From positions 1-62,872 of IMG/VR virus record IMGVR_UViG_3300008107_007316: a stretch of DNA of 62,872 nt, one strand, 5' to 3'. The position numbers and the translations under genes are program-made. The notes under the pieces were generated by a model. It saw nothing but the letters and a program-made list of their open reading frames with translations, made no database searches and had not been told where the DNA came from. Source of the stretch: a virus. Of this stretch, positions 2,770 to 38,962 are shown piece after piece (the stretch's first letter is position 1; each line of letters begins with the position of its first letter).

Positions 2770-3441
2770 TTAACAATCTGCACTAAAAATAAGTGAGGAT
2801 CCATCCCAATAATAACATCCTGAAGCATCAACATAGTAACCTTGAGCAGAAGGTGTTGTACAATCTTTATCGTCAAATATTCCAAATGCACCCTCCAAAC
2901 GACAAGCGGCGCCAACACATATGTGAAGGTAAACTTGTCTTACATCATTACATTGACAAGCAGTTACACAGTCATCTTGACTATAACATAATTCCACAAG
3001 ACAACAATCAAGTGCACATGGAGAAGGTGTTGGTGTCATTGTTGGTGTTGGTGTTGGTGTTGGACTTACTCCCCCACCTGATGAAGGTGTTGGTGTTGGT
3101 GTTTTAGTTGGATCCGGAGTAATAGGTGGAGTATTAGGTGGTGTTGACGTAGGTGTTGGAGTTGTGGTTGGAGTATTAGTTGGTGTATTTGGAGGTGTTC
3201 TTGTTGGTGTTGCAGTATTAGTTGGTGTATTTGGAGGTGTTCTTGTTGGTGTTACTGTTCTTGTTGGTGTCATTGTTTGAGTTGGAACAGGGCTACCACC
3301 TGGAGTTCTTGTTGGAGTTACAGTTGGAGTTGGAGAACAAAAATCAATGTCATCCATTTTACTTGCATTTGCCTTAAGTATATCGTCTACTTTACTGATA
3401 TTTGCACATAAAACGTCATTAACTTTACTTACTGTTGGCAT
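2770..3441 (-). CDS. Virion surface protein with Thr-Pro mucin-like linker and Cys-rich C-terminus
   Basis: The 223-residue product has three parts. Residues 1-35 hold a near-repeat (SKVNDVLCANISKVDDILKA then NASKMDDID). Residues about 37-140 are a low-complexity TPTPT/TPTRTPPNTPTNT linker. The last 80 residues are a compact domain with about ten cysteines (CALDCCLVELC, CVTACQC) and aromatic residues at the end. No family is recognised by name. The linker type recurs in three other genes of this window (56330, 14820, 17175), and the gene is the last of the minus-strand fibre cluster, so a tail-fibre or decoration role is likely. Thr/Pro-rich linkers are classic O-glycosylation substrates, and a glycosyltransferase gene ends just 50 bases away. 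Confidence 0.7.
   Translation of the reverse strand: MPTVSKVNDVLCANISKVDDILKANASKMDDIDFCSPTPTVTPTRTPGGSPVPTQTMTPTRTVTPTRTPPNTPTNTATPTRTPPNTPTNTPTTTPTPTSTPPNTPPITPDPTKTPTPTPSSGGGVSPTPTPTPTMTPTPSPCALDCCLVELCYSQDDCVTACQCNDVRQVYLHICVGAACRLEGAFGIFDDKDCTTPSAQGYYVDASGCYYWDGSSLIFSADC
3173..3256 (-). repeat. Two tandem 42-base units in the Thr-Pro linker
   Basis: A 42-base unit beginning GTATTAGTTGGTG on the plus strand occurs twice in tandem and codes for a 14-residue TPTRTPPNTPTNTA unit. It suggests growth of the linker by unit duplication. Confidence 0.8.
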
Positions 3442-3451
3442 ATTAAATAAA

Positions 3452-6400
3452 TTATACTAACTCAATCCAATCTTGTGAAGGATTAAAATAAATTTCATCT
3501 GCGGCGATAGCGTATCCAACAACTCTAACTATATCTGCTGATCCGGTTGGTTGTGTTGAGGTTAATGCTCCTGGTGTTGTTGATAAATAAACAGGTGATC
3601 CAACAGTAAATGACCAACTCGTGTTTTTCATATAACCTCTAATCATAACACCAATTTCAAATCCATCACTACTAACAGCAATCCCTAAAAGGTTTCTTGA
3701 GTTTGCAGCAAAATCCGCATCTGTAAGAATCCATGTTGTTGATGAACTCAAATAATACACTGAACCTCTTGTTGACGTACCAGTTACTATTGAAATCGCC
3801 TCACCGTACCAATCACCATTATTAACCAATCTATTTATTGGGTTAGTATTTAAAATGTATGTACCAGAACCTGATGTAACTGAAAGTTGAGTACTAATCG
3901 TAACACTACCATTAACATTTAATAAAGACCCATTAAAAGTTAAGTTAGGTTCTGAGTTTGCAGAGTTTGCAGTCCCGTTAGCGGTTAATACATTATTATC
4001 GGTTGTTGGTGATATAGTAGAGAATCCTGTACCTGAAGTACCATTTGTACCAGAAGTACCGTTAGTTCCCGATGTTCCGTTGGCTCCCGATGTACCATTT
4101 GTTCCTGAAGTTCCGTTTGTACCATTTGTTCCTGAGGTTCCATTTGTACCATTAGTTCCTGAAGTTCCATTGGCTCCGCTGGTTCCATTAGTTCCCGAAG
4201 TACCATTTGTTCCATTAGTTCCTGAAGTTCCGTTGGCTCCCGATGTACCATTTGTTCCTGAGGTTCCATTAGTACCATTAGTTCCTGAAGTTCCGTTCGT
4301 ACCATTTGTACCTGATGTTCCATTGGTTCCGTTGGTTCCCGAAGTACCTGACGCACCGCTTACACCGCTAGTTCCATTAGTTCCTGAAGTACCATTTGTT
4401 CCATTAGTTCCGCTAGTACCATTTGTACCGTTGGTTCCGTTAGTACCTGATGTTCCATTAGTGCCGTTTGTTCCTGAAGTTCCATTTACACCTGAAGTAC
4501 CATTTGTACCACTAGTTCCATTAGTCCCATTTGTCCCCGAAGTTCCATTTACTCCACTAGTACCATTAGTTCCCGATGTTCCATTTGCTCCGCTGGTTCC
4601 GTTAGTTCCTGAGGTTCCATTCGTACCATTAGTTCCCGATGTTCCATTTGCTCCGCTAGTACCATTAGTTCCTGATGTTCCATTCGTACCATTCGTTCCT
4701 GATGTACCGTTTGCACCGCTAGTACCATTTGTTCCTGAAGTTCCATTCGTACCGTTTGTTCCTGAAGTTCCGTTTGCACCGCTAGTACCATTTGTTCCTG
4801 AAGTTCCATTCGTACCGTTTGTTCCTGAAGTTCCGTTTGCACCGCTAGTACCATTTGTACCTGAGGTTCCATTAGTACCGTTTGTTCCTGAAGTTCCGTT
4901 TGCACCGCTAGTACCATTTGTACCTGAGGTTCCATTAGTACCGTTAGTACCTGAAGTTCCGTTGGCTCCCGATGTACCATTTGTTCCTGAAGTTCCATTC
5001 GTACCGTTTGTTCCTGAAGTTCCGTTGGCTCCCGATGTACCATTTGTTCCTGAAGTTCCATTAGTTCCGCTAGTCCCATTCGTACCATTAGTACCTGATG
5101 TTCCGTTGGTTCCATTAGTCCCTGATGTTCCGTTGGCTCCGCTCGTACCATTAGTTCCACTTGAACCATTTGTTCCGTTAGTACCTGATGTCCCATTAGT
5201 TCCAGATGTACCATTAGTTCCGTTTGTGCCTGATGTTCCATTTGTACCATTAGTACCTGAGGTTCCATTTACACCACTTGTTCCATTTGTACCTGAAGTT
5301 CCATTTGTTCCGTTTGTACCAGAAGTCCCATTAGTACCATTTGTCCCACTAGTTCCATTAGTACCGCTAGTGCCGTTAGTTCCATTTGTTCCGTTAGTTC
5401 CGTTGGTACCTGAAGTTCCATTTGTCCCGTTAGTTCCGTTAGTACCATTTGTACCTGAAGTTCCGTTGGTTCCACTAGTTCCATTTGTACCGTTTGTGCC
5501 ACTTGAACCATTCGTACCATTAGTTCCGCTTGTGCCATTTGTACCATTTGTTCCTGAAGTTCCATTCGTCCCTGAAGTACCATTAGTACCATTCGTTCCA
5601 CTTGTACCATTAGTACCTGAAGTTCCATTCGTTCCGCTAGTTCCATTCGTACCATTTGTACCTGATGTACCATTAGTTCCTGAAGTTCCGTTAGTACCAC
5701 TGGTGCCATTTGTTCCATTTGTACCTGAAGTTCCGTTGGTTCCACTAGTTCCATTTGTACCATTAGTTCCTGATGTTCCGTTTGTACCTGAAGTCCCGTT
5801 TGTTCCGTTAGTACCACTTGAACCATTTGTTCCATTAGTCCCTGATGTTCCGTTGGTACCATTTGTTCCTGAAGTTCCATTAGTACCATTTGTTCCGTTT
5901 GTACCATTAGTTCCTGAAGTTCCATTAGTTCCTGATGTTCCGTTAGTACCTGACGTTCCATTTGTTCCGTTAGTACCACTCGAACCATTCGTCCCATTAG
6001 TTCCCGATGTACCATTCGTTCCGCTAGTTCCATTAGTACCATTGGTTCCTGATGTACCGTTAGTCCCACTTGTTCCATTAGTACCGTTTGTACCTGATGT
6101 GCCGTTTGTTCCATTTGTCCCCGATGTTCCATTTGTACCGCTAGTACCATTCGTACCTGACGTTCCATTTGTACCATTTGTTCCGCTTGTACCATTAGTA
6201 CCTGATGTACCGTTTGTTCCACTAGTTCCGTTTGTACCATTTGTTCCACTTGTACCATTAGTTCCTGACGTTCCATTCGTCCCACTAGTTCCATTTGTAC
6301 CGTTAGTTCCTGAAGTACCGTTAGTTCCTGAAGTACCATTTGTTCCTGATGTTCCGTTAGTCCCATTTGTTCCCGAAGTTCCATTAGTACCTGATGTACC

Positions 6401-9400
6401 ATTTGTACCGCTAGTTCCATTAGTACCATTAGTCCCTGAAGTTCCATTTGTTCCCGATGATCCATTAGTACCATTTGTACCTGATGTTCCGTTTGTTCCC
6501 GATGTCCCATTAGTTCCGTTAGTCCCATTTGTTCCGCTAGTACCATTTGTTCCATTCGTTCCACTTGTACCATTAGTTCCTGAAGTCCCATTTGTACCAT
6601 TAGTTCCGTTGGTTCCTGACGTTCCATTTGTTCCATTCGTACCGCTAGTCCCGTTGGTTCCTGATGTTCCATTAGTGCCAGATGTTCCGTTAGTACCATT
6701 TGTACCACTAGTACCATTTGTTCCATTAGTTCCCGATGTACCATTTGTACCTGAGGTTCCGTTAGTTCCATTCGTACCGCTAGTTCCATTAGTACCATTA
6801 GTACCCGAAGTTCCATTTGTTCCGCTAGTCCCATTAGTACCGTTTGTTCCCGATGTTCCATTAGTGCCAGAAGTTCCATTCGTACCTGATGTACCGTTTG
6901 TACCTGAAGTACCATTTGTTCCGTTTGTACCACTAGTTCCATTAGTTCCGTTAGTTCCATTTGTACCCGACGTACCATTTGTTCCTGAAGTACCGTTGGT
7001 ACCACTTGAACCATTTGTTCCATTAGTCCCTGATGTACCGTTTGTTCCATTTGTACCGTTAGTTCCCGAAGTTCCATTAGTCCCTGATGTACCATTCGTT
7101 CCATTGGTTCCACTTGTACCATTTGTTCCTGACGTTCCATTAGTTCCTGAAGTTCCGTTTGTACCTGAGGTTCCATTTGTTCCGTTCGTTCCTGAAGTAC
7201 CATTTGTCCCTGAAGTACCATTTGTTCCATTTGTACCTGAGGTTCCGTTCGTACCTGAAGTACCGTTTGTTCCATTGGTCCCGCTCGTACCATTGGTTCC
7301 TGAAGTTCCATTCGTACCGTTAGTTCCATTAGTCCCTGATGTACCGTTTGTTCCATTTGTACCGTTAGTTCCTGATGTACCATTTGTACCGCTAGTTCCA
7401 TTTGTACCCGATGTTCCATTAGTTCCATTTGTCCCGTTAGTTCCCGATGTTCCATTTGTACCTGATGTTCCATTAGTTCCATTAGTACCATTCGTTCCAC
7501 TTGAACCATTTGTTCCATTAGTTCCCGACGTACCGTTAGTTCCTGAAGTTCCATTGGTTCCATTGGTTCCGTTCGTTCCTGAAGTACCATTTGTACCGTT
7601 AGTTCCATTTGTTCCATTAGTCCCTGATGTTCCATTTGTCCCGTTAGTTCCGTTAGTACCATTTGTACCTGAGGTTCCATTTGTTCCGTTCGTTCCTGAA
7701 GTACCATTGGTTCCATTGGTTCCGTTCGTTCCTGAAGTACCATTTGTACCATTAGTACCGTTAGTTCCATTTGTTCCTGAAGTACCATTTGTTCCGTTCG
7801 TACCATTGGTTCCTGATGTCCCGTTTGTACCTGAGGTTCCGTTTGTTCCATTTGTACCAGAAGTTCCATTTGTACCATTGGTTCCTGATGATCCATTAGT
7901 TCCATTAGTACCTGAAGTTCCATTCGTTCCGCTAGTTCCATTAGTACCTGAAGTCCCATTAGTTCCATTAGTTCCTGATGTCCCATTTGTTCCATTAGTT
8001 CCATTAGTACCCGAAGTCCCATTTGTTCCTGAAGTTCCATTTGTCCCATTGGTTCCTGATGTCCCATTAGTTCCATTAGTACCCGAAGTCCCATTTGTTC
8101 CTGAAGATCCATTCGTACCGTTGGTACCACTTGAACCGTTTGTTCCGTCAGTTCCTGAAGTACCATTGGTACCTGAAGTCCCGTTTGTACCATTTGTACC
8201 TGAAGTTCCATTAGTTCCATTAGTTCCTGATGTTCCGTTGGTTCCATTAGTTCCTGATGTTCCGTTGGTTCCGTTTGTCCCATTTGTACCATTGGTTCCT
8301 GAAGTTCCATTAGTACCTGACGTTCCATTGGTACCGTTTGTTCCGTTAGTACCACTAGTTCCGTTTGTACCCGACGTTCCATTCGTTCCATTTGTACCGT
8401 TAGTACCATTTGTTCCACTTGTACCATTGGTTCCTGAAGTTCCATTTGTACCATTGGTTCCTGAAGTGCCATTTGTTCCACTAGTTCCATCCGTTCCGTT
8501 AGTTCCATTTGTACCTGAAGTACCATTGGTTCCATTGGTTCCTGAAGTACCATTCGTTCCGTTAGTTCCATTCGTTCCGTTAGTTCCGCTAGTACCGTTG
8601 GTACCACTTGAACCATTTGTTCCCGACGTACCGTTAGTTCCTGAAGTTCCATTAGTCCCGCTCGTACCGTTAGTTCCATTTGTACCTGAAGTACCATTGG
8701 TTCCATTCGTTCCTGAAGTACCATTCGTTCCTGAAGTTCCATTAGTCCCGCTCGTACCGTTGGTTCCATTTGTACCGCTAGTACCATTTGTTCCTGATGT
8801 CCCATTAGTGCCATTAGTTCCACTTGAACCATTTGTTCCGTTAGTTCCTGATGTTCCGTTTGTTCCTGATGTGCCATTAGTACCGTTTGTACCTGATGTT
8901 CCGTTTGTACCATTAGTTCCTGAAGTTCCATTCGTACCGTTAGTTCCATTTGTTCCGCTAGTACCATTGGTTCCGTTAGTTCCCGATGTACCATTAGTTC
9001 CATTTGTACCGTTTGTACCCGAAGTTCCATTAGTGCCTGACGTTCCATTGGTTCCGTTTGTTCCATTAGTACCTGAAGTTCCATTAGTACCATTTGTACC
9101 TGACGTTCCGTCGGCACCACTTGTTTGATAGAACGTATTTCCATTTGAATCAACAACAACAAATCTTGTTAAACTTGATCCACTTGTTATTCCTGTAATA
9201 GTTAAATTTGTTGTTGTGGTTCTACCTGAACCATCAAAAGATATTTTGTTAACACCAGCACCATTTTGAATTTGGAATACCGCATCAGCATCAGAAGCAC
9301 TTCCTCGTCTAAATGTTACCCCATCCAAAATTGAATTTGTAATAATCTCAGGGTCCGCTGAGTTATTATATGCTTGTTGTAAGTTTGTTGTTGGTGAACC

Positions 9401-10624
9401 ACCAGCTGCTCCCGTTGAATCTCCAAATTTAGAAACATTGAAAAATACCGCCTTATCTGTATCTGATAAATCGGTGGCACTACTTAAAACAGATAACACA
9501 CCAATTAATACAGCATTAGTTGTGAAATTAGAAAACTCAACGTATTGTTCTGTTGCAATGCCGGCAATTGCCTGTGATAATGTTTGATATTCTGTTTGTC
9601 CATATTGAATTCTAAAAACCCCGTTTTGTACTACATAAATTCTTTGGTTGGTCGCTTTTGTTCCCGATATATTTGTAATTACACCCCCCACATCATACTT
9701 AGTTGGATCAATAACTGTTGTGTTTGATGAAGTTCCACCTGTTTGTGTTCTATATTGGAATGTACATGGGGCTGTTCCCGAAACATAAAGAGCATCAGGA
9801 TTTGAGGTATCGTTAGTAAAATTAATACCTAACCCATATATGTATCCTGCACTTGTATTAAAATTTAAATTAACTCCGTTAGGTGATGGTTTTATGCCAC
9901 CATTTATTAAACCAATTGGATAAAACATATCACGTAGTTGTGATAACGGTGATAAAACAAAATCAGGTTGGCTAAATGCATTAATAATGTTTGTTTTATT
10001 GGCGTGACCTAATTTACCTAAAAATAAATTTTGTCTTCTTTGTTGTTCAGTTAAAGGAGTATTTGATTGAGATATTGTACCACCACTTGTTAAATAAATC
10101 CAAGTTTCAGTATCTGTGTTAACATAAGTCGCAGTAAACGTACCCCCAGTATATTGAAGATAATAAAGTTGTGGTGATAAAGGATTTGTTGTGTCATCAA
10201 CTATCCAACCTTTAACAGGTGCAACAGTAAATGTTGTTGGGGATGCGATAGTAATTCCTGTAAATTCAAATACACCAGTTGATGAGTTAACTGTTGAAAT
10301 ATTATATCCCACAGCAACCCACTCACTTCCGTTACTCGATAATTGTATACTATTTGTTTCACCTAAAATTATAAAGGATTTTCCATCAATGGTTTCACTT
10401 CCGAATGGGTCTACTGTTACCGCACCTCCACCATTATTTTTAATGACGTATAAACGACCTTTTTTGCCAACTGCCGTCGGTAATGATACATTAAATGTAC
10501 CACCGGTAATGTCGATCATATAATCGTCTGTGGTTGCGGTGTAAGCACCATTGATTGTTACTTGTGGAAATGTTATTCCACCCAAAGATATTATACCACG
10601 CCTTGCGACGAATTCATTTGCCAT
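3452..10624 (-). CDS. Giant collagen-like virion fibre protein (Gly-Thr-Asn/Ser triplets)
   Basis: At 2390 residues this is the largest gene in the window. Residues 1-500 are a non-repetitive head: MANEFVARRGIISLGGITFP and a beta-rich region with GGGAVTVDPFGSETIDG, typical of phage fibre attachment parts. Residues about 502-2200 are uninterrupted Gly-X-Y triplets, nearly always Gly-Thr-Asn or Gly-Thr-Ser with rare Gly-Ala-Asn, Gly-Val-Asn and Gly-Thr-Asp. The last 190 residues are a folded tip (GFSTISPTTDNNVLTANGT to DWIELV) with a repeat seen in pyocin/phage-fibre-like tips. The triplet tract predicts a collagen-like trimeric stalk without proline, so stability must come from Thr, as reported for Thr-rich bacterial collagens. 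Each Asn-Gly-Thr is also an N-X-T sequon. Likely a long tail or head fibre, late expressed. Confidence 0.85.
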   Translation of the reverse strand: MANEFVARRGIISLGGITFPQVTINGAYTATTDDYMIDITGGTFNVSLPTAVGKKGRLYVIKNNGGGAVTVDPFGSETIDGKSFIILGETNSIQLSSNGSEWVAVGYNISTVNSSTGVFEFTGITIASPTTFTVAPVKGWIVDDTTNPLSPQLYYLQYTGGTFTATYVNTDTETWIYLTSGGTISQSNTPLTEQQRRQNLFLGKLGHANKTNIINAFSQPDFVLSPLSQLRDMFYPIGLINGGIKPSPNGVNLNFNTSAGYIYGLGINFTNDTSNPDALYVSGTAPCTFQYRTQTGGTSSNTTVIDPTKYDVGGVITNISGTKATNQRIYVVQNGVFRIQYGQTEYQTLSQAIAGIATEQYVEFSNFTTNAVLIGVLSVLSSATDLSDTDKAVFFNVSKFGDSTGAAGGSPTTNLQQAYNNSADPEIITNSILDGVTFRRGSASDADAVFQIQNGAGVNKISFDGSGRTTTTNLTITGITSGSSLTRFVVVDSNGNTFYQTSGADGTSGTNGTNGTSGTNGTNGTNGTSGTNGTSGTNGTNGTNGTSGTNGTNGTSGTNGTNGTNGTSGTNGTNGTSGTNGTNGTSGTNGTSGTNGTNGSSGTNGTNGTSGTNGTSGTNGTNGTSGTNGTSGTNGTSGTNGTNGTSGTNGTNGTSGTNGTSGTNGTSGTNGSSGTNGTSGTNGTNGTNGTNGTSGTNGTNGTSGTNGTNGTDGTSGTNGTSGTNGTNGTSGTNGTSGTNGTNGTNGTNGTSGTNGTSGTNGTNGTNGTSGTNGTSGTNGTNGTNGTNGTSGTNGTNGTSGTNGTNGTSGTNGTNGTSGTNGTSGTDGTNGSSGTNGTNGSSGTNGTSGTNGTNGTSGTNGTNGTSGTNGTSGTNGTNGTNGTSGTNGTNGTSGTNGTSGTNGTSGTNGTNGSSGTNGTNGTSGTNGTNGTSGTNGTSGTNGTNGTNGTSGTNGTNGTNGTNGTSGTNGTNGTNGTSGTNGTNGTSGTNGTNGTNGTNGTSGTNGTNGTNGTNGTSGTNGTNGTNGTSGTNGTSGTNGTNGSSGTNGTNGTNGTSGTNGTSGTNGTNGTNGTSGTNGTSGTNGTSGTNGTNGTNGTSGTNGTNGTNGTSGTNGTSGTNGTNGTSGTNGTSGTNGTNGTSGTNGTSGTNGTNGTSGTNGTSGTNGTSGTNGTSGTNGTNGTSGTNGTSGTNGTNGTNGTSGTNGTNGSSGTNGTSGTNGTSGTNGTNGTNGTSGTNGTNGTSGTNGTSGTNGTSGTNGTSGTNGTNGTSGTNGTSGTNGTNGTSGTNGTNGTSGTNGTSGTNGTNGTSGTNGTNGTSGTNGTSGTNGTSGTNGTNGTSGTNGTNGTNGTSGTNGTSGTNGTNGTSGTNGTNGTNGTSGTNGTSGTNGTNGSSGTNGTSGTNGTNGTSGTNGTSGTNGTSGTNGTNGTSGTNGTSGTNGTSGTNGTNGTSGTNGTSGTNGTSGTNGTNGTSGTNGTSGTNGTSGTNGTNGTSGTNGTSGTNGTSGTNGTNGTSGTNGTNGTSGTNGTSGTNGTNGTSGTNGTSGTNGTNGSSGTNGTNGTSGTNGTSGTNGTSGTNGTNGTNGTNGTSGTNGTNGTSGTNGTNGSSGTNGTNGTSGTNGTSGTNGTNGTSGTNGTSGTNGTNGTSGTNGTSGTNGTSGTNGTNGTSGTNGTSGTNGTSGTNGTNGTSGTNGTSGTNGTNGTSGTNGTNGSSGTNGTNGTSGTNGTSGTNGTNGTNGTNGTSGTNGTNGTNGTNGTSGTNGTSGTNGTNGTSGTNGTNGTSGTNGTSGVNGTSGTNGTNGTSGTNGTNGTSGTNGTSGTNGTNGSSGTNGTSGANGTSGTNGTNGTSGTNGTNGTSGTNGTSGTNGTSGANGTSGTNGTNGTSGTNGTSGANGTSGTNGTNGTSGTNGTSGANGTSGTNGTNGTSGTNGTSGANGTSGTNGTNGTSGTNGTSGANGTSGTNGTNGTSGTNGTSGANGTSGTNGTNGTSGTNGTSGANGTSGTNGTNGTSGTNGTSGANGTSGTNGTSGVNGTSGTNGTNGTSGTNGTSGVNGTSGTNGTNGTSGTNGTNGTNGTSGTNGTNGTSGTNGTSGVSGASGTSGTNGTNGTSGTNGTNGTSGTNGTNGTSGTNGTSGANGTSGTNGTNGTSGTNGTSGANGTSGTNGTNGTSGTNGTNGTSGTNGTSGANGTSGTNGTSGTNGTSGTGFSTISPTTDNNVLTANGTANSANSEPNLTFNGSLLNVNGSVTISTQLSVTSGSGTYILNTNPINRLVNNGDWYGEAISIVTGTSTRGSVYYLSSSTTWILTDADFAANSRNLLGIAVSSDGFEIGVMIRGYMKNTSWSFTVGSPVYLSTTPGALTSTQPTGSADIVRVVGYAIAADEIYFNPSQDWIELV
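4028..9118 (-). repeat. Nine-base Gly-X-Y coding repeat tract, about 5.1 kb
   Basis: About 565 consecutive triplets (5.09 kb divided by 9). Codons for Gly, Thr, Asn and Ser are mixed synonymously along most of the tract, so the protein is far more regular than the DNA. The tract leaves an open frame on the opposite strand (about 4080-9128) that reads as VPLVPEVPF units; this is a coding shadow, not a gene. Confidence 0.95.
4552..5045 (-). repeat. Higher-order 63-base repeat within the collagen tract
   Basis: An Ala-containing triplet (GAN) recurs every 21 residues, for example at plus-strand positions 4587 and 4650 and onward at 63-base steps. Neighbouring units are almost identical in DNA (TTTGCACCGCTAGTACC and flanks), unlike the rest of the tract. 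This points to recent unit duplication or gene conversion near the C-terminal end. Confidence 0.8.
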
Positions 10625-10679
10625 ATTCTTTTTCTTTTTTCCCTATCCAAAAGAAAATCCTTTGATTTATTTGTTATTC

Positions 10680-10687
10680 AATAAATA
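10680..10687 (-). promoter_or_regulatory. Candidate late promoter element TATTTATT
   Basis: Read on the minus strand this is TATTTATT, the element shared by late genes here. It lies 55 bases before the giant fibre gene, farther than usual, in the 116-base gap between the two collagen-like genes. Confidence 0.4.
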
Positions 10688-10740
10688 TTCATTAAGTAAA
10701 CTTTATCACCTAAAAAGAAAAATTAAATAAAAGATTGTTT

Positions 10741-13700
10741 TTAGAAAACGATTCTTGTTGCAACTAAGATGTCCCAAGTATCAACACTAATTGTTGCAAT
10801 TAATTCAACACTTCCTGAATTTACTTGAACTTTCCAAACAAGATCTGCGGTTGATCCATTTAAATCGGGGGATGAAATATCAGTAAATACTGCACTTGCG
10901 TTGTCCCAAGTTGAAAATACTTGACCCATACGTTTGTAACCATTTGTATTAGTAATACAATATTCAAATATTGCCGAACAACCAAAGTCGGTACCAAATG
11001 TGTCAATAATTGTTGTTGTTGAAATGTTTGTTGATGTTTTAGTGTTAACTTTATCGTAACTTGCATTTAAAGTTAGTACTCCGTCAGGTCCATTATATGT
11101 GAAATTGGCTTCAGCAACAATTCCTCCTGATCCATCCGAAGTTAAAACTTCATTATCTAATCCCGGTACTAAAGGTGATGATCCGCTAGTCCCGTTTGTC
11201 CCATTAGTACCGCTAGTTCCATTTGTTCCCGAAGTCCCATTAGTTCCGCTTGTTCCATTAGTTCCGCTTGTTCCATTGGTTCCGCTAGTACCGTTAGTTC
11301 CACTTGTACCATTTGTTCCATTTGTGCCTGATGTACCATCCGTACCATTAGTCCCGTTAGTTCCATTAGTTCCGCTAGTCCCATTTGTTCCGCTAGTCCC
11401 ATTTGTTCCGTTAGTACCATTCGTACCTGATGTGCCACTTGAACCATTTGTTCCATTTGTGCCTGAAGTTCCGTTAGTTCCTGAAGTTCCGTTAGTTCCT
11501 GAAGTACCATCTGTTCCGTTAGTTCCTGAAGTACCATCTGTTCCGTTAGTTCCTGAAGTACCGTTAGTTCCTGAAGTACCGTTTGTTCCATTCGTACCGC
11601 TTGTTCCATTGGTTCCTGATGTTCCATTAGTACCGTTGGTTCCACTTGAACCATTTGTTCCATTTGTACCCGATGTACCATTTGTTCCTGAAGTTCCGTT
11701 AGTTCCGTTAGTCCCTGACGTTCCGTTTGTTCCATTCGTACCGCTAGTACCATTAGTTCCTGATGTTCCATCCGTACCATTTGTTCCCGAAGTCCCATTA
11801 GTTCCGTTAGTTCCTGATGTTCCATCAGTGCCACTTGAGCCATTAGTACCATTAGTTCCTGATGTTCCGTTCGTACCATTTGTTCCATTGGTACCGTTGG
11901 TTCCTGATGTACCATTAGTCCCGTTTGTACCACTAGTCCCATTAGTTCCAGATGTCCCATCAGTACCGTTTGTTCCCGAAGTCCCATTAGTTCCGTTAGT
12001 ACCACTAGTACCATTGGTTCCATTTGTTCCCGAAGTCCCATTAGTTCCGTTTGTTCCGCTAGTACCATTAGTTCCGTTTGTTCCTGAAGTCCCATTTGTA
12101 CCATTGGTACCTGATGTCCCGTTTGTTCCTGATGTCCCATTTGTTCCATTTGTTCCATTAGTTCCGCTAGTCCCATTTGTTCCATTTGTCCCATTCGTAC
12201 CATTAGTTCCAGACGTCCCATCAGTCCCGTTTGTCCCTGAGGTTCCATTGGTTCCGTTTGTACCGTTGGTACCTGATGTTCCATTTGTCCCGTTGGTTCC
12301 ACTAGACCCATCAGTCCCATTAGTTCCTGATGTCCCATTAGTTCCCGAAGTTCCATTTGTTCCTGATGTCCCATTTGTACCATTAGTCCCGTTAGTACCG
12401 TTGGTTCCACTTGAACCATTTGTTCCATTCGTTCCCGAAGTCCCGTTAGTACCATTTGTTCCCGAAGTTCCATCCGTACCATTAGTCCCGTTAGTACCAT
12501 TTGTTCCCGAAGTACCGTTGGTTCCGTTTGTACCTGAAGTTCCATCCGTTCCGTTTGTACCTGAAGTTCCGTTAGTTCCATTGGTACCTGAAGTTCCATT
12601 TGTCCCATTAGTTCCGGATGTTCCACTTGATCCGTTAGTTCCGTTTGTACCTGATGTTCCATTTGTACCGTTAGTTCCTGAAGTCCCATTAGTACCACTA
12701 GTTCCATCCGTACCATTTGTCCCACTAGACCCGTTAGTACCGTTTGTTCCTGAAGTTCCATTAGTACCGTTAGTTCCACTTGTTCCATTAGTACCATCAG
12801 TTCCTGATGTACCATTGGTTCCTGATGTTCCATCGGTTCCATCTACACCAGATAATCCACTTGTGCCGTTTGTGCCTGAGGTCCCATCTGTACCATTAGT
12901 TCCGCTTGTTCCATCCGTACCATTAGTTCCGCTTGTTCCATCCGTACCATTAGTTCCGCTTGTTCCATCCGTACCATTAGTTCCGCTAGTACCATCTGTT
13001 CCATTAGTTCCGCTTGTTCCATCCGTACCATTAGTTCCGCTAGTACCATCTGTTCCATTTGTTCCTGAAGTTCCACTTGTACCATCTGTTCCTGAAGTTC
13101 CGCTTGTACCATCTGTTCCTGAGGTTCCGCTTGTACCATCTGTTCCTGAAGTTCCGCTTGTACCATCTGTTCCTGAGGTTCCATCCGTACCATTAGTTCC
13201 GCTTGTACCATCTGTACCATTTGTTCCGCTTGTACCATCTGTTCCTGAGGTTCCATCCGTACCATTAGTTCCGCTTGTACCATCTGTTCCTGAGGTTCCC
13301 GATGTACCGTCTGTTCCGTTAGTCCCTGAAGTCCCATCTGTTCCATTAGTACCACTAGTGCCGTCCGTTCCATTTGTTCCGGAAGTTCCATCTGTTCCAC
13401 TAGTACCATCTGTTCCATTTGTACCTGAAGTTCCGCTTGTACCATCTGTACCTGAAGTGCCACTAGTACCATCTGTACCTGAAGTTCCCGAAGTTCCATC
13501 CGTACCATTTGTTCCACTAGTGCCATCTGTTCCATTTGTTCCGCTTGTTCCATCAGTACCCGATGTTCCGCTTGTTCCATCAGTACCCGATGTTCCATCA
13601 GTTCCTGAAGTTCCATCTGTTCCGTTAGTTCCTGAAGTTCCATCTGTTCCGTTAGTTCCTGAAGTGCCTGAAGTTCCATCCGTACCACTTGAACCATTTG

Positions 13701-14436
13701 TTCCATCTGTACCGCTTGAACCATTTGTTCCATCTGTTCCTGAGGTTCCATTAGTCCCTGAAGTTCCATTTGTACCAGAAGTTCCCGAAGTCCCATCAGT
13801 ACCATTTGTTCCGTTTGTACCACTTGTTCCATCAGTACCACTTGTTCCATTTGTGCCTGAAGTTCCGTTAGTTCCGCTTGTACCATTTGTTCCTGAAGTT
13901 CCACTTGTTCCATCAGTACCGGAAGTTCCACTTGACCCATCTGTTCCATTAGTTCCGCTAGTACCATTTGTACCGTTTGTTCCCGATGTCCCGTTTGTAC
14001 CGTTTGTTCCAGATGTACCATTTGTACCTGAAGTTCCGTCAGTTCCGCTAGTACCATTTGTTCCTGATGAACCGCTAGAACCTGAAGATCCTGATGAACC
14101 ACTAGTTCCGCTTGACCCATTTGTTCCATTAGTTCCCGATGTTCCATTCGTACCATTAGTACCTGATGTTCCATTCAAACCTGAAGTTCCATCTGTACCT
14201 GAAGTTCCATTTGTGCCTGAAATACCATCATTTCCACTCGTACCATTAGTACCTGAAGTACCGTCAGTACCTGAAGTACCTACACTACCAATTACAGATG
14301 CAAGTTGAGCGATTGTTGCTTTATATGAAGAACCTGCCGGATTTTGAGACGTATCTCCGGTTATAACTATATGAAATAAATCAGTAAGTGTTACACCAGT
14401 TGCTAATACTCTGTCCGTCAGTCGTTGTAAACCCAT
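10741..14436 (-). CDS. Second large collagen-like virion fibre protein (Gly-Thr-Asp/Asn/Ser triplets)
   Basis: The product has 1231 residues. Residues 1-51 are a head domain (MGLQRLTDRVLATGVTLTDL, a short form of a motif found at the N-terminus of many phage fibre proteins, including YKATIAQLASVIG). Residues about 52-1085 are Gly-X-Y triplets, mainly Gly-Thr-Asp, Gly-Thr-Asn and Gly-Thr-Ser. The final 145 residues form a tip that starts SSPLVPGLDNEVLTSDGSGG and ends in a beta-rich domain. Compared with the neighbouring giant fibre it uses far more Asp, especially in its N-terminal half, giving an acidic stalk. The two genes are adjacent, same strand and clearly related by stalk type but not by end domains. 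Likely fibre or head decoration; the exact place in the virion is unknown. Confidence 0.85.
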   Translation of the reverse strand: MGLQRLTDRVLATGVTLTDLFHIVITGDTSQNPAGSSYKATIAQLASVIGSVGTSGTDGTSGTNGTSGNDGISGTNGTSGTDGTSGLNGTSGTNGTNGTSGTNGTNGSSGTSGSSGSSGSSGSSGTNGTSGTDGTSGTNGTSGTNGTNGTSGTNGTNGTSGTNGTDGSSGTSGTDGTSGTSGTNGTSGTNGTSGTNGTSGTDGTSGTNGTNGTDGTSGTSGTNGTSGTNGTSGTDGTNGSSGTDGTNGSSGTDGTSGTSGTNGTDGTSGTNGTDGTSGTDGTSGTDGTSGTSGTDGTSGTNGTDGTSGTNGTDGTSGTSGTDGTSGTSGTDGTSGTSGTNGTDGTSGTDGTSGTNGTDGTSGTNGTDGTSGTNGTDGTSGTSGTDGTSGTNGTDGTSGTDGTSGTNGTDGTSGTNGTDGTSGTDGTSGTSGTDGTSGTSGTDGTSGTSGTDGTSGTSGTNGTDGTSGTNGTDGTSGTNGTDGTSGTNGTDGTSGTNGTDGTSGTNGTDGTSGTNGTDGTSGTNGTSGLSGVDGTDGTSGTNGTSGTDGTNGTSGTNGTNGTSGTNGTNGSSGTNGTDGTSGTNGTSGTNGTNGTSGTNGTNGSSGTSGTNGTNGTSGTNGTNGTSGTNGTDGTSGTNGTNGTSGTNGTNGTNGTDGTSGTNGTNGTSGTNGTNGSSGTNGTNGTNGTNGTSGTNGTSGTNGTSGTNGTDGSSGTNGTNGTSGTNGTNGTNGTSGTNGTDGTSGTNGTNGTNGTNGTSGTNGTNGTNGTSGTNGTSGTNGTNGTSGTNGTNGTSGTNGTNGTSGTNGTNGTSGTNGTNGTSGTNGTDGTSGTNGTSGTNGTNGTSGTNGTNGTNGTNGTSGTNGTNGSSGTDGTSGTNGTNGTSGTNGTDGTSGTNGTSGTNGTNGTSGTNGTNGTSGTNGTSGTNGTNGSSGTNGTNGTSGTNGTSGTNGTNGTSGTNGTSGTNGTDGTSGTNGTDGTSGTNGTSGTNGTSGTNGTNGSSGTSGTNGTNGTNGTSGTNGTSGTNGTNGTNGTDGTSGTNGTNGTSGTNGTSGTNGTSGTNGTSGTNGTSGTNGTSGTNGTNGTSGSSPLVPGLDNEVLTSDGSGGIVAEANFTYNGPDGVLTLNASYDKVNTKTSTNISTTTIIDTFGTDFGCSAIFEYCITNTNGYKRMGQVFSTWDNASAVFTDISSPDLNGSTADLVWKVQVNSGSVELIATISVDTWDILVATRIVF
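11185..14285 (-). repeat. Collagen-like nine-base repeat tract, about 3.1 kb
   Basis: Continuous Gly-X-Y coding repeats of about 345 triplets. Asp-containing triplets dominate from about 12.8 to 14.0 kb and Asn-containing ones from 11.2 to 12.8 kb, so the stalk has two compositional halves. An antisense open frame (11099-14308) is a shadow of the repeats. Confidence 0.95.
12880..13075 (-). repeat. 27-base higher-order repeat (GTDGTSGTN units)
   Basis: The plus-strand unit TCCGTACCATTAGTTCCGCT recurs with a 27-base step about six times with few changes, coding for GTDGTSGTN. It is a locally homogenised part of the second collagen tract. Confidence 0.8.
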
Positions 14437-14470: not shown

Positions 14471-14779
14471 TTATTGATCTTGGAAAATGAAAATCTCCGC
14501 ATCCATAAATAAGAATATTTCACCATCCTCAAATATTTTAGCCGTATTAATACCTCCACAATAAAGAACCCCAAATAATTCACATCCAACATTATCTATC
14601 ATTTTTAACCCAACTGCTGGTGAACCATTAAATTGTGGTGGTAATGTTATTGTTAACGGAAAGGTTGCTGTTGATGGTATTGTTGCAATTAACACACATT
14701 GATTTCCATAAACATCACAAGCATATAATGTATATGGATATGCTGAACCTGTAATGGAATTTATTTGAATTTGTGTCAT
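14471..14779 (-). CDS. Small virion-cluster protein of unknown function
   Basis: A 102-residue protein with no recognised family. The sequence is beta-prone: MTQIQINSITGSAYPYTLYACD, then a proline-rich turn TITLPPQFNGSPAVGLK and a C-terminal stretch FEDGEIFLFMDAEIFIFQDQ rich in Phe and acidic residues. Three cysteines are spread over the chain. There is no signal peptide or membrane segment. It sits between two large virion genes on the same strand with its own promoter element four bases before the start, so it is probably a small structural or decoration protein. The location is the only argument for that role. Confidence 0.65.
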   Translation of the reverse strand: MTQIQINSITGSAYPYTLYACDVYGNQCVLIATIPSTATFPLTITLPPQFNGSPAVGLKMIDNVGCELFGVLYCGGINTAKIFEDGEIFLFMDAEIFIFQDQ

Positions 14780-21482: not shown

Positions 21483-21491
21483 CTTTTTTTT

Positions 21492-21499
21492 AATAAATA
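21492..21499 (-). promoter_or_regulatory. Candidate late promoter element TATTTATT (leftward)
   Basis: TATTTATT on the minus strand, nine bases before the ATG at 21482. It is one half of a back-to-back pair with the element at 21512. Confidence 0.65.
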
Positions 21500-21511
21500 C
21501 CACTAACGAAG

Positions 21512-24556: not shown

Positions 24557-24608
24557 GTTGATATTAATTCATTAAATGATTATATTTCTAATAAATTTAT
24601 ATTTTATT

Positions 24609-25823
24609 ATGACAAAAATTAATGTATTAGTTCTCCCAAGTGACAAATCTGGTGTGGGAAAGTTTAGGTCAGTTGACCCTCACGTAATGTTACAGAATAT
24701 GTATCCTAACGATTTCCATATAGATATTGATTACGAACCAAAAGTTATGGATCAAAACTATTGGAAAAAATATCAGATTGTACACGTACACAGAAACATT
24801 GGTCAAACCTATGAAGAAACACCTAAATTAATTGAGTGGTTAAAATCAAATGGTATTATCGTTATTGTGGACATAGATGATTATTGGTTACCAACAAAAG
24901 AACACCCTATTCACCAATTAATTATCCAAAATAAAATACACCAAAAGATTATGGATAATTTAAAAGTTGCATCTTATGTGACAACAACAACGAAATTATT
25001 TGCCGAAGAAATTAAAAAATATAATAAAAACGTTGAGGTATTCGCAAATGCAATTAACCCTAAAGATCCACAATTTAATGAGCCAACATTACCATCTAAT
25101 AAAATTAGAGTGGGTTGGTTAGGAGGATCATCACACCTTCACGATTTAAAATTAATGAATGGATTTGTTTCAAAATTATCTCCATTACAAGATAAATTAC
25201 AATATTACGTTTGTGGTTTTGATACAAGAGGTACGGTAACTGAAATTAATAAGGAAACGGGACAACAAACTCAAAGAGCAATTAAACCCGAAGAAACGGT
25301 TTGGGCAAGATATGAAGAAATATTTACTGACAATTATAAAATAGTAACTCCTAAGTACAAAGAGTTTTTAAATAAATTCGAAGAGAGTGAATTTTTTGGT
25401 TGGGAAAATGAAAACTATGTTAGAGTGTGGACAAGACCAGTTACCACCTACGCTAAAAATTATTCCAAATTCGATATTTCGTTAGCACCAATTCAAAATC
25501 ATATCTTTAATAGAATGAAATCACAATTAAAAGTTATTGAAGCGGGATTTTACAAAAAAGCATTAATTGCTTCTAACGTGGGACCATATACAATTGATTT
25601 GAAACACGCATTACACCAAGGTCAATTTACTGATGGAAATGCTTTATTAGTTAATGAATCAAATAACCATAGTGATTGGTCAAAAAATATTAAAAAATTA
25701 GTAGAGAATCCAAATATGATTGTTGATTTAGGTGAACGATTATACGAAACAGTTAAAGATAAATACGACCTTAATAACGTAACAAAAGAAAGAGCAGAAT
25801 TTTACAAATCCTTAATAAAATAA
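24609..25823 (+). CDS. Glycosyltransferase, GT-B fold
   Basis: The start is placed at 24609 (MTKINVLVLPSDKSGVGKFR) because the 11 codons before it, from 24576, are a hydrophobic run lacking in relatives and would begin inside the AT-rich leader. The 404-residue protein has a GT-B layout: an N-terminal domain with VLPSDKSGVGKFRSVDPHV and VHVHRNIGQTYEE, a linker with VIVDIDDYWLPTKEHP, and a C-terminal domain with RVGWLGGSSHLHDLKLM and SLAPIQNHIFNRMKSQLKVIEAGFY, the donor-binding Glu-x-Gly region of GT4-type enzymes. Sugar donor and acceptor are unknown. It opens the plus-strand sugar island, 52 bases after a terminator, and is followed after three bases by the exonuclease gene. Similar proteins are common in environmental T4-like phages. 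Confidence 0.85.
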   Translation: MTKINVLVLPSDKSGVGKFRSVDPHVMLQNMYPNDFHIDIDYEPKVMDQNYWKKYQIVHVHRNIGQTYEETPKLIEWLKSNGIIVIVDIDDYWLPTKEHPIHQLIIQNKIHQKIMDNLKVASYVTTTTKLFAEEIKKYNKNVEVFANAINPKDPQFNEPTLPSNKIRVGWLGGSSHLHDLKLMNGFVSKLSPLQDKLQYYVCGFDTRGTVTEINKETGQQTQRAIKPEETVWARYEEIFTDNYKIVTPKYKEFLNKFEESEFFGWENENYVRVWTRPVTTYAKNYSKFDISLAPIQNHIFNRMKSQLKVIEAGFYKKALIASNVGPYTIDLKHALHQGQFTDGNALLVNESNNHSDWSKNIKKLVENPNMIVDLGERLYETVKDKYDLNNVTKERAEFYKSLIK

Positions 25824-25826
25824 AAA

Positions 25827-26546
25827 ATGATTAACGTCCCAATTACAAAAATTTTATTCCTTGATATTGAAACAGTAGGAATATCAAAAGATTATGATAC
25901 TTGTGTAAAAGAATACCCAAGATTAGGTGAACAATTTGATAAGTATTTCGATTGGTTTTTAAAAAGATTTCCTGAAGATCAATTGATTGGTAAGAATGAA
26001 AATGAACGAAAAAATCTAATCTTCTCAACAAGAACGGCATTAGTTCCTGAATTTGCAAAGATTGTTTGTGTAAGTGTTGCCTTTGTAACAGATAAGAATG
26101 AAGTTAAAAAACAAACATTCTCAAATGATAATGAAGAAAAACTTTTAACTGAACTCCAAATATTGTTAAATCGTTGTGGAAAATTAGATTTTCATTTATG
26201 TGGGCACAACTTAAAGAATTTCGATATTCCAATGATAGCCAAACGTATGATTATTAATGGATTAAAACCATCATCAATACTACCATCATACGATACTAAA
26301 CCTTGGGAAGTTAAAGCCATTGACACTAAAGACGTGTGGCAATATGGTGCTTACACAGCAATTGGTTCTTTAGATTTAATGTGTTCCGCATTAGATATAC
26401 CAACACCAAAAGGTGGTGAAGTAACAGGAGATAAAGTTCACGATTGTTATTGGAATAAAGGTATGTTAAAAGAAATTGGTGAGTACTGTGAACGAGATGT
26501 TGAGGTTCTAATTGATGCTATCATAAAATTAAAACAATTAAAGTAA
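25827..26546 (+). CDS. DnaQ/PolB-type 3'-5' exonuclease
   Basis: A 239-residue protein of the DEDD exonuclease superfamily. ExoI is ILFLDIETVG with Asp13 and Glu15. ExoII is LCGHNLKNFDIPMIAKRM, with the Asp of NFDIP. ExoIII is EYCERDVEVLIDA with the last catalytic Asp near residue 224. The overall pattern fits the predicted exonucleases related to the PolB proofreading domain (DNA_pol_B_exo2 family). The enzyme should remove nucleotides from 3' ends of DNA or RNA; a role in genome replication, repair or RNA processing cannot be told apart. Its ATG is three bases after the glycosyltransferase, and its last base is the first base of the dUTPase start codon. Confidence 0.85.
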   Translation: MINVPITKILFLDIETVGISKDYDTCVKEYPRLGEQFDKYFDWFLKRFPEDQLIGKNENERKNLIFSTRTALVPEFAKIVCVSVAFVTDKNEVKKQTFSNDNEEKLLTELQILLNRCGKLDFHLCGHNLKNFDIPMIAKRMIINGLKPSSILPSYDTKPWEVKAIDTKDVWQYGAYTAIGSLDLMCSALDIPTPKGGEVTGDKVHDCYWNKGMLKEIGEYCERDVEVLIDAIIKLKQLK

Positions 26547-27172
26547 TGGATAATAATAAATCGGAACATAATATGTCTGTTGACGAATTTGAGGAAATGC
26601 TTAAACGAGTTAGTACTCTTGAATCCGCCTTTGATGAAGATGGGGAAATTGAAATTGATTACGATTCAATTATCGAAGAATTTGGTTTGGATGTTGAGGA
26701 ATTAGAGAGAGCCATGGAATCTATGCAACCCACAATTAAATTACATTATAGTAAATCGAATGTAGATGCAATATCTCCATCTTATGCTTATCCTACGGAT
26801 TCAGGTATGGATTTATTTTCAACCGAAAAAATCATTATTGAACCTTTTGGAAGAGAATTAGTTCCAACAGGAATTCATTTTGATATTCCTGAAAACTATG
26901 AGATACAAATTAGATCAAAAAGTGGATTGGCTCTAAAACAAGGATTGATGGTATTAAATTCTCCCGGAACTATTGATCAAGGATACACGGGAGAAATTAA
27001 AGTTATAATTTTTAACACAACTAATAAAAGTGTAGAAATTACAAAAGGTCAAAAAATTGCTCAAGCCGTTATGACACCGGTTGTTTGTGGTAAATGGATT
27101 GATTTAACAGAAGTTGAAAATGTTACCTCAAAAGATAGAGAGGATAATGGATTTGGAAGTACCGGAATATGA
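26546..27172 (+). CDS. dut: Deoxyuridine 5'-triphosphate nucleotidohydrolase (dUTPase)
   Basis: The 208-residue protein hydrolyses dUTP to dUMP and pyrophosphate, keeping uracil out of phage DNA and feeding dTMP synthesis. All five motifs of trimeric dUTPases are present: DSGMDL (85-90), RSKSGLA (123-129), PGTIDQGYTGE (140-150), KIAQAVMTPV (170-179) and NGFGSTG (201-207), the last being the P-loop-like C-terminal arm. Residues 1-60 are an extra, strongly acidic extension (FEEMLKRVSTLESAFDEDGE) absent from typical dUTPases of about 145 residues. It may be a regulatory or interaction arm. It is the only nucleotide enzyme inside the sugar island, joined by overlaps to the exonuclease before it and the glycosyltransferase after it. 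Confidence 0.95.
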   Translation: MDNNKSEHNMSVDEFEEMLKRVSTLESAFDEDGEIEIDYDSIIEEFGLDVEELERAMESMQPTIKLHYSKSNVDAISPSYAYPTDSGMDLFSTEKIIIEPFGRELVPTGIHFDIPENYEIQIRSKSGLALKQGLMVLNSPGTIDQGYTGEIKVIIFNTTNKSVEITKGQKIAQAVMTPVVCGKWIDLTEVENVTSKDREDNGFGSTGI

Positions 27173-28560
27173 TAACAATTGGATATAGTACAAAATCAAC
27201 AAAACCAAATTTTATTGCCCACATAAAAGAAACTTGTGGGTTAGAAAATTTTCAAATAATTGAAAAGATAAACAACGGCGAAAAATCATTATCGGTAACA
27301 TACAATGAAATTTTATCAGAGAGTTTACATGACATTGTTGTATTATGTCACGATGATATTATTTTTGAAAAACCTTATTGGGCAAAAAGAGTTGTTGAAC
27401 ACTTTACAAAAAGACCTGAGTACGGAATCCTTGGTGTTGCCGGTACAAGATATTATCCATCATCAGGTATGTGGTGGGAAATAAGTTCTGAAATGGTTGG
27501 TCAAGTTTACCATAAACATAATGGAAAAAAGTGGTTATCTTCATATAATGAACCATTTGGTAATAAGGTAATTGATACTGTTATCATTGATGGTGTTTTA
27601 ATGATGGTAAATAAGAAAAAAATATTTACAAAATTTAATGAAGAAGTGGAAGGATTCCATTTTTATGATACAACATTTTCATTTGAGAACCATATCAATG
27701 GTGTGAAAGTTGGTGTAATATCAAACATACCAATTACTCATTTATCAATAGGAATGACAAATGATCAATGGAATAAAAATAGAGAAAAATTTATAGAAAA
27801 ATATAAAGAACATTTACCAAATATTTTAGAAAATAATTTACCAATTATTGAACAAAATAAAAAACTTCCTTTAGTATCTATAATAATGCCGGTTTACAAT
27901 TATGGTAAAATGTTTCATAAATCTATTGAATCGGTATTTAACTCAACATATAAAAACTTTGAACTTATTATTATAAATGACGGATCAACCGATGAATATG
28001 TTTTAAACAAATTAAAATCATTATCTAACCACCCGAATATAAAAATTATACATCAAGAAAATGGTGGTCCGGCTAAAGCAAGAAATAATGGAATTAAAAA
28101 CTCAAATGGGGTTTATATATTACCATTAGATTCAGATGATATGATATCTACCGAATACATTCAATCATGTGTGAATATCATAAGAAAGGATAAAAATATT
28201 AGCCCTGTCTATTGTGATACAAATCATATTGGTCAAATGTCTGGTGTGGAAAATAGACCTGAATGGTCAAAAGAACGATTAATTCAAGGACCATTTATTG
28301 TTAATTGTTCAATGTTTACAAAAGAATCTTTTGATCTATGTGGTGGTTACGATGAAGAAATGAAAGGGTGGGAAGATTATGATTTATGGGTTAGAATGAT
28401 GAATAACGGTTTTGTAGGTAAAAGAATACCAAAACCATTGTTCACATATTATCACCACGAAAAAGACGGTACCGTATCAACAGAGGCAAATAAAAACACA
28501 AAAGAATTATATGATTATATAATGATTAAAAACAATATAATTAAAAATGAAAATAACTGA
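27169..28560 (+). CDS. Two-domain glycosyltransferase (GT-A type)
   Basis: A 463-residue protein with two glycosyltransferase domains. The first, about 1-220, starts MITIGYSTKSTKPNFIAHIK and has LHDIVVLCHDDIIFEKPYWAK, resembling the Glyco_tranf_2_5 family with its HDD motif. The second, about 240-450, is a classic GT2 domain: LVSIIMPVYNYGKMFHKSIE, IIINDGSTDEY, AKARNNGIKNSNGVYILPLDSDD with the metal-binding Asp-x-Asp, and WEDYDLWVRM near the C-terminus. Such tandem enzymes usually extend a glycan by two sugars. The ATG overlaps the dUTPase stop by four bases. Substrates are not readable from the sequence. Confidence 0.85.
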   Translation: MITIGYSTKSTKPNFIAHIKETCGLENFQIIEKINNGEKSLSVTYNEILSESLHDIVVLCHDDIIFEKPYWAKRVVEHFTKRPEYGILGVAGTRYYPSSGMWWEISSEMVGQVYHKHNGKKWLSSYNEPFGNKVIDTVIIDGVLMMVNKKKIFTKFNEEVEGFHFYDTTFSFENHINGVKVGVISNIPITHLSIGMTNDQWNKNREKFIEKYKEHLPNILENNLPIIEQNKKLPLVSIIMPVYNYGKMFHKSIESVFNSTYKNFELIIINDGSTDEYVLNKLKSLSNHPNIKIIHQENGGPAKARNNGIKNSNGVYILPLDSDDMISTEYIQSCVNIIRKDKNISPVYCDTNHIGQMSGVENRPEWSKERLIQGPFIVNCSMFTKESFDLCGGYDEEMKGWEDYDLWVRMMNNGFVGKRIPKPLFTYYHHEKDGTVSTEANKNTKELYDYIMIKNNIIKNENN

Positions 28561-29176: not shown

Positions 29177-29178
29177 TT

Positions 29179-31022: not shown

Positions 31023-31023
31023 T

Positions 31024-36248: not shown

Positions 36249-36261
36249 TAAATAATAATAA

Positions 36262-37895: not shown

Positions 37896-37899
37896 ATAT

Positions 37900-38961: not shown

Positions 38962-38962
38962 T

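What the first reader, a model, noticed from the sequence alone, without database searches (positions are those of the whole stretch)
3452..14436. Two adjacent giant proline-free collagens dense in N-X-T sequons
Stalks of about 565 and 345 Gly-X-Y triplets use Thr at X and Asn, Ser or Asp at Y. Every Asn-Gly-Thr is formally an N-glycosylation sequon and every Thr a possible O-site. Proline is absent, so triple-helix stability would need another source, such as glycosylated Thr. The second stalk has an acidic Asp-rich half and an Asn-rich half.
Basis: partly seen in the sequence, partly recalled or inferred. Interest (0 to 1): 0.75.

Follow-up and report, generated by a model that had tools for sequence, protein, structure and literature searches.

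The report
Proline-free collagen fibre pair in phage
An uncultured bacterial virus carries two neighbouring genes for very long collagen-type fibre rods that contain no proline and instead repeat Gly-Thr-Asn, Gly-Thr-Ser and Gly-Thr-Asp; many environmental viruses share such rods, and a strict rule about which residues may sit together suggests that collagen can be built without proline.

Summary
ORF A (3452-10624, -) has 566 uninterrupted Gly-X-Y triplets and ORF B (10741-14436, -) has 346. Neither stalk contains Pro, Lys or Arg. X is Thr in 94-95% of triplets; Y is Asn, Ser or Asp. Pfam Collagen matches strongly. Both are modular virion-fibre genes of an uncultured Caudoviricetes phage; one relative fuses the same two rods into a single 3723-aa ORF.

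The N-glycosylation reading is not supported: close relatives keep the end domains but use almost Asn-free G-(S/T)-S rods, no oligosaccharyltransferase was found, and the stalks hold no bacterial-type sequons. Thr O-glycosylation stays open: the window encodes a large glycan cluster, but such genes are as common in relatives without collagen.

New result: across 57 distinct arrays (12,221 triplets, 38 loci) the rods obey a grammar. Asn or Asp at Y occurs beside Thr, Val or Ile at X but almost never beside Ser (fewer GSN/GSD than expected in 49 of 50 arrays), and Asn is followed by Gly-(Thr/Ser) 99% of the time. Synonymous sites are far less coupled. I read this as selection on a proline-free triple helix in which beta-branched Thr takes over proline's stiffening role; that mechanism is inferred, not shown.

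The parts
3452..10624 (-). ORF A, 2390 aa collagen-type fibre protein
9119..10624 (-). A N-terminal part (502 aa), tail-fibre family phrog_16641 / phrog_5668; relatives in Streptomyces phage tailspike-annotated proteins and 23 IMG/VR loci (up to 79% identity), with and without stalk
4025..9118 (-). A stalk, 566 Gly-X-Y triplets, X=Thr, Y=Asn/Ser, no Pro; contour about 486 nm if a triple helix
3455..4024 (-). A C-terminal domain (190 aa) ending in the YFNPSQDW motif; model resembles phage capsid-decoration (cement) proteins
10741..14436 (-). ORF B, 1231 aa collagen-type fibre protein
14290..14436 (-). B N-terminal adaptor (49 aa), shared by 162 IMG/VR stretches; long GXY rod in 16 of 53 distinct ORFs examined
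12734..14289 (-). B stalk, N-terminal half, rich in Asp
11176..12733 (-). B stalk, C-terminal half, rich in Asn
10744..11175 (-). B C-terminal domain, 144 aa, no family match
14471..14779 (-). 102-aa ORF directly upstream of B; an ORF of the same length sits at the same place before the fused gene in relative L008/L240 (sequences not compared)
2770..3441 (-). 223-aa TPT-rich ORF downstream of A; a 232-aa ORF sits at the same place in L240 (sequences not compared)
24576..39769 (+). glycan gene cluster: GT4-type, double GT2, GT25, GT2, two DegT aminotransferases, hexapeptide transferase, GT11, GT10, epimerase, GDP-mannose dehydratase, GT1-type, GT2 (dUTPase, exonuclease and PhoH genes interspersed); candidate but unlinked modifier

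Best explanation
A and B are two consecutive subunits of a long virion fibre of an uncultured tailed phage. Each chain has an end adaptor, a strict Gly-X-Y rod and a C-terminal cap, and three chains are expected to be brought together by the caps and wound into a collagen-type triple helix. The rod contains no proline. Thr at X, a beta-branched residue, is proposed to hold the backbone in the extended polyproline-II form, while Asn, Asp or Ser at Y and Thr/Ser at the next X line the outside and hydrogen-bond between chains or through water. The rods would be about 490 and 300 nm long, acidic near the N-terminal end and neutral further out, and would carry attachment domains far from the particle. 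Shown: sequence, modularity, a selection-like residue grammar, conservation of the rod type. Inferred: trimer, triple helix, hydrogen bonding, attachment role, orientation on the virion.
For: Gly 912/912 with variable synonymous bases. Pfam Collagen match. Tail-fibre family match of A's N-terminus. A's cap model resembles phage capsid-decoration proteins, Z up to 8.4; several of these are known trimers (own knowledge). Relative L008 carries B-type adaptor, Asp-rich rod, 165-aa knob, Asn-rich rod and A-type cap in one 3723-aa ORF. Pro 15 in 24,442 X/Y positions over 57 distinct arrays. Grammar: Y is Asn/Asp beside Thr 50%, Val 78%, Ile 68%, Ser 2.6%; GSN+GSD fewer than expected in 49 of 50 arrays; both Ser codon families obey and GSS uses 31 codon pairs. 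Neighbouring Y residues share 0.278 bits against 0.018 for synonymous Gly bases. The same preference appears in other phage and bacterial arrays. Asp falls from the N- to the C-terminus in most long arrays.
Against: No structure, melting or virion data exist for this phage. In host-guest peptides Thr at X and Asn at Y are, from memory, among the weaker triplets, so an unmodified rod might melt at low temperature. The strongest coupling, between neighbouring Y residues (Ser isolated, Asp followed by Ser), is not a direct contact in a collagen triple helix and is unexplained. Ala at X (52% N/D) breaks the simple beta-branching rule. N-terminal attachment to the virion is assumed; the cement-like C-terminal cap could instead anchor to the head.
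Confidence: 0.55

Rival explanations
1. The Thr residues of the rod are O-glycosylated by the phage's own glycosyltransferases, and the sugars rather than the peptide stabilise or shield the fibre (as proposed for galactosyl-Thr in tube-worm collagen, from memory; loosely as in mimivirus fibrils).
For: 536 + 324 Thr at X; window glycan cluster with GT4, GT2, GT25, GT10, GT11, DegT and GDP-mannose dehydratase genes. GT25 is found in 11 of 22 collagen-bearing and 2 of 10 collagen-free records. Thr is preferred over Ser beside Asn/Asp.
Against: GT2 genes are as common without collagen (15/22 against 8/10). The stalk-bearing records G008 (147 kb) and G019 (79 kb) show no GT2. EPclA phage collagen, expressed in E. 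coli, is stable without glycans (PMC3368898). Records are fragments, so absence is weak.
Confidence: 0.2
2. The dense N-x-S/T sequons are used for N-glycosylation.
For: All 498 stalk Asn lie in N-G-T/S; across arrays Asn is followed by Gly-(Thr/Ser) in 4017 of 4052 cases.
Against: Phage virion proteins fold in the cytoplasm (established knowledge); no STT3 in 15 records; no extended bacterial sequon in the stalks; relatives with the same end domains lack sequons. Conservation of T/S after Asn is equally explained by side-chain contact along the axial Y-X' pair.
Confidence: 0.03
3. The rod is not a collagen triple helix but another Gly-rich fold (polyglycine-II or polyproline-II bundle, beta-solenoid) or a flexible hydrated chain.
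For: Composition unlike any collagen whose structure I know; no proline; Y-Y coupling not predicted by collagen contacts.
Against: Strict Gly at exactly every third residue over 566 and 346 triplets and no longer repeat period shared between arrays; no hydrophobic core residues for a solenoid; Gly fraction only one third.
Confidence: 0.22
4. The arrays are by-products of repeat expansion with no selection on residue choice beyond Gly.
For: Period-9 DNA arrays with exact repeats up to 89 nt; a 7-triplet block carrying GAN is visibly duplicated in A.
Against: Residue rules hold in 49 of 50 arrays, across both Ser codon families and 31 GSS codon pairs, while synonymous bases are almost uncoupled. 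Ser-Ser avoidance in A remains after collapsing identical 18-mers (3 observed, 55 expected).
Confidence: 0.05

Closest known systems
Prophage collagen-like side-tail proteins EPclA/EPclB of E. coli O157:H7 (PMC3368898)
   Same: Phage fibre with a Gly-X-Y rod between N- and C-terminal domains; shown to be trimeric and collagen-like by CD and EM, unglycosylated.
   Different: EPcl rods are rich in Pro at X and in charged residues (GPK, GPQ, GPA, GER, GET). The rods here have no Pro, Lys or Arg, use GTN/GTS/GTD/GSS and are very much longer.
Bacterial collagen-like proteins such as Scl (PMC8968730)
   Same: Polar residues thought to build a hydration network in place of hydroxyproline.
   Different: Bacterial rods average 19% Pro at X and 31.6% Thr at Y (PMC8968730); here Thr is at X and Pro is absent.
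Mimivirus collagens with L230 (PMC9614988)
   Same: Viral, proline-poor collagens in a genome with its own sugar-nucleotide and glycosyltransferase genes.
   Different: Mimivirus modifies Lys; these stalks contain no Lys, and no link between the glycan genes and the rods was found.
Phage capsid decoration (cement) proteins, e.g. Pam3, TW1, phi29 gp8.5 base
   Same: Fold resemblance of A's C-terminal cap.
   Different: Z of 8.4 or less and low sequence identity; Pfam Phage_cement_2 below its cut-off. Membership not claimed.

Membership tests
Collagen-like proteins (Pfam PF01391) | Gly at every third residue over many triplets | tested here: met
   566 and 346 uninterrupted triplets
Collagen-like proteins (Pfam PF01391) | Profile match above the curated cut-off | tested here: met
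   151 and 155 bits, cut-off 27.2
Collagen-like proteins (Pfam PF01391) | Right-handed triple helix of three chains | not testable with these tools
   needs CD, melting, EM
Imino-acid-stabilised (classical) collagen | Pro or Hyp at X/Y | tested here: not met
   0 Pro in 912 triplets; 15 in 24,442 positions over 57 arrays
Phage tail-fibre protein (phrog_16641, phrog_5668) | Profile match of A's N-terminal part | tested here: met
   E 1.1e-21 and 2e-17
N-glycoprotein made by STT3/PglB | Oligosaccharyltransferase encoded by the phage | tested here: not met
   0 of 15 records, including the window; the host is unknown and the records may be fragments
N-glycoprotein made by STT3/PglB | Extended bacterial sequon [DE]xNx[ST] | tested here: not met
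   0 in both stalks
Glycosylated-Thr collagen | Sugars on rod Thr | not testable with these tools
   needs mass spectrometry; genomic co-occurrence gives no clear support
Mimivirus-type Lys-modified collagen | Lys in the rod | tested here: not met
   0 Lys in both stalks
Phage_cement_2 (PF09956) | Score above gathering cut-off for A's cap | tested here: not met
   17.9 bits, cut-off 24; fold resemblance only

The most novel reading that the evidence does not exclude
A widespread class of phage fibres uses a proline-independent triple helix with its own triplet code: GTN, GTD, GTS and GSS are allowed, GSN and GSD are nearly forbidden, Asn is followed by Gly-(Thr/Ser), and beta-branched X residues replace proline. 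This yields fibres up to about 0.5-1 micrometre long from unmodified residues.
Probability: 0.35. Interest if true: 0.78.

Novelty: new variant of a known kind. Interest (0 to 1): 0.55.

Why it matters
Collagen stability is usually credited to proline and hydroxyproline, or in bacteria to proline plus charged residues. Hundreds to a thousand triplets without either, repeated across many environmental phages and under a strict residue rule, make the question of how a triple helix can be stable without proline directly testable, and could give a simple genetically encoded recipe for long collagen rods. The rule also predicts which single residue changes should break a rod. I found no description of such a rule in the papers searched, but that library is partial.

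Tried and rejected
N-glycosylation sequons as a selected feature: rejected because they vanish in relatives with the same end domains and no OST was found. Glycan cluster as a dedicated rod modifier: co-occurrence shows no clear link; left open. Long antisense ORFs on the + strand (1682 aa at 4080-9128, 1069 aa at 11099-14308): explained entirely by composition, since synonymous shuffles also give 0 stops in that frame. Helical-twist stripe (Ser quasi-period near 2.3-2.6 triplets): the pooled peak is near 2.4 triplets, but individual arrays peak at 2.3-3.1 and A's peak coincides with a duplicated 7-triplet block, so inconclusive. Off-register minimisation of the Y pattern: no consistent effect. 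Frameshift artefact splitting one gene into A and B: rejected, since a 116-nt gap with stop and start separates them and A's N-terminus has its own relatives. Model of A's N-terminal part: pLDDT 34, not used. Foldseek on A's cap gave no significant PDB match; only the realignment by VIA-align gave Z about 8, which is suggestive. A residue-wise melting prediction was not made because published propensity numbers were not found in the searchable papers.

Full report
What is there. The window is an IMG/VR virus record of 62,872 bases with terminase, portal, protease and major head protein genes on the minus strand. ORF B (10741-14436) and ORF A (3452-10624) follow each other on the minus strand, separated by 116 nt. 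Both contain uninterrupted Gly-X-Y rods, 346 and 566 triplets, without Pro, Lys or Arg. Pfam Collagen matches both strongly.

More than chance. All 912 Gly codons are kept while their third bases are mixed (A: GGA 301, GGT 211, GGG 42, GGC 13), and Thr uses all four codons. Most of the DNA is not recently duplicated: only 192 of 5050 45-mers recur in A, and the longest exact repeat is 89 nt. Proline absence is specific to the rods: the proteins around them have 3-16% Pro.

Architecture and relatives. A has a tail-fibre-type N-terminal part and a C-terminal cap ending in YFNPSQDW, with relatives in 33 IMG/VR loci. B has a 49-aa adaptor found in 162 IMG/VR stretches. Each end module occurs with and without a rod, so the rod is an exchangeable insert. 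In relative L008 the B-type adaptor (80% identity), an Asp-rich rod of 409 triplets, a 165-aa knob, an Asn-rich rod of 695 triplets and the A-type cap (66%) form one 3723-aa ORF, so A and B look like a split version of one long fibre. Ten records of terminase relatives (45-150 kb contigs, some fragmentary) had no collagen match at all, so the rods appear to be gained and lost quickly. The cap model (mean pLDDT 77) resembles capsid decoration proteins from several phages (Z 5-8.4). That would suit a trimer, but the Z values are middling and Pfam Phage_cement_2 stays below its cut-off.

Relatives with the same end domains use different Y residues. L006/L007 (66% identical cap) have Y = Ser 298 and Asn 10 of 342; L366 (74% identical N-terminal part) has Y = Ser 284 and Asn 2 of 288; L008, L009 and L140 are Asn-rich like A. 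Formal sequons are therefore a by-product of choosing Asn at Y. No STT3 was found in 15 stalk-bearing records, and the stalks contain neither extended bacterial sequons nor Bacteroidetes O-sequons.

Glycosylation of Thr. The window has an impressive glycan cluster, which keeps O-glycosylation possible. But GT2 genes occur in 15 of 22 collagen-bearing and 8 of 10 collagen-free records, DegT in 9 of 22 and 3 of 10, and GT25 in 11 of 22 and 2 of 10. Only GT25 leans towards collagen, and these fragmentary records cannot settle it. The cluster may equally act on host surface sugars or DNA.

A residue grammar. Over 57 distinct arrays (12,221 triplets, 38 loci): X is Thr 9210, Ser 2526; Y is almost only Ser, Asn, Asp. 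Beside Thr, Y is Asn or Asp in 50%; beside Val 78%, Ile 68%, Leu 32%, Asn 8%, Ser 2.6%. GSN plus GSD are below expectation in 49 of 50 arrays, and arrays found by domain search rather than by the GTN pattern obey it too (e.g. L390 0 against 12, L394 1 against 16, L392 7 against 36). After Asn the next X is Thr or Ser in 4017 of 4052 cases, after Ser in 6678 of 7067. In the window's family Ser at Y is isolated (A: 3 Ser-Ser neighbours, 79 expected) and Asp is followed by Ser (51 of 55 in B, 95 of 109 in L008). Both Ser codon families obey. Coupling between synonymous sites is about a tenth or less of that between neighbouring Y residues (0.008-0.025 against 0.278 bits in the window's family), so common descent of repeat units alone does not explain it. 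The Thr-not-Ser preference also appears in other phage arrays (51% against 7%) and bacterial arrays (85% against 36%), and Pro at X goes with Asn/Asp at Y in 0-1%; the bacterial sample was picked by a GTN pattern, which inflates the Thr figure.

Interpretation. The X-Y and Y-X' couplings coincide with the two classes of side-chain contact in a triple helix (lateral and axial; established collagen literature, own knowledge). Beta-branched residues favour extended backbone, and Asn-Gly or Asp-Gly favour turns, so a beta-branched X beside Asn/Asp would keep the chain in polyproline-II form. This makes a proline-free triple helix the best reading, but the neighbouring-Y rule is unexplained and Ala at X is an exception. 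Asp declines from the N- to the C-terminus in most long arrays, an unexplained but recurrent feature. If helical, the rods are about 486 and 297 nm long.

Compared with what is known. Phage collagens of E. coli O157:H7 are proven trimers but Pro- and charge-rich (PMC3368898). Bacterial collagens average 19% Pro at X and 31.6% Thr at Y (PMC8968730). Mimivirus collagens are proline-poor but Lys-modified (PMC9614988). The present rods are a distinct, widespread variant: hence 'new variant of a known kind'.

Noticed in passing
window 21533-47346 (+) between minus-strand head genes and minus-strand fibre genes: A large glycan gene block (GT2, GT10, GT11, GT25, DegT, GDP-mannose dehydratase, epimerase) lies on the opposite strand between the two virion modules; relative L008's contig carries DegT, GT2 and GT25 matches in a matching (mirrored) order.
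   Followed up: partly
window 2770-3441, 14820-17141, 17175-21503, 56330-56710 (-): Several virion-region proteins with TPT/PTPT tandem repeats (12-20% Thr and 7-16% Pro in the first three), the opposite composition to the proline-free rods next to them.
   Followed up: no
window 4080-9128 (+) and 11099-14308 (+): Very long antisense ORFs (1682 and 1069 aa) over the stalks; composition artefact, as synonymous shuffles also give no stops.
   Followed up: yes
L392 (ORF 3339 aa) and L240 (ORF 3723 aa): Even longer proline-free rods: 926 triplets in one array, and 409 + 695 in one protein (about 0.8-0.95 micrometre if helical).
   Followed up: partly
L423 near 10001 compared with L420: The B-type ORF stops after 16 triplets (95 aa) in L423, while close relative L420 reads 40 triplets and 980 aa; possible frameshift inside the repeat.
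   Followed up: no
[quoted passage not shown] L390, L394 and L092 are exceptions or truncated.
   Followed up: partly
spacers in L240, L243, L098, L066: Non-collagen knobs of similar length (163-171 aa) interrupt rods in several phages.
   Followed up: no
LR756501 413825-413992 and 39 more places: A 735-kb uncultured phage genome shares stalk-type DNA with B at 73% identity.
   Followed up: no
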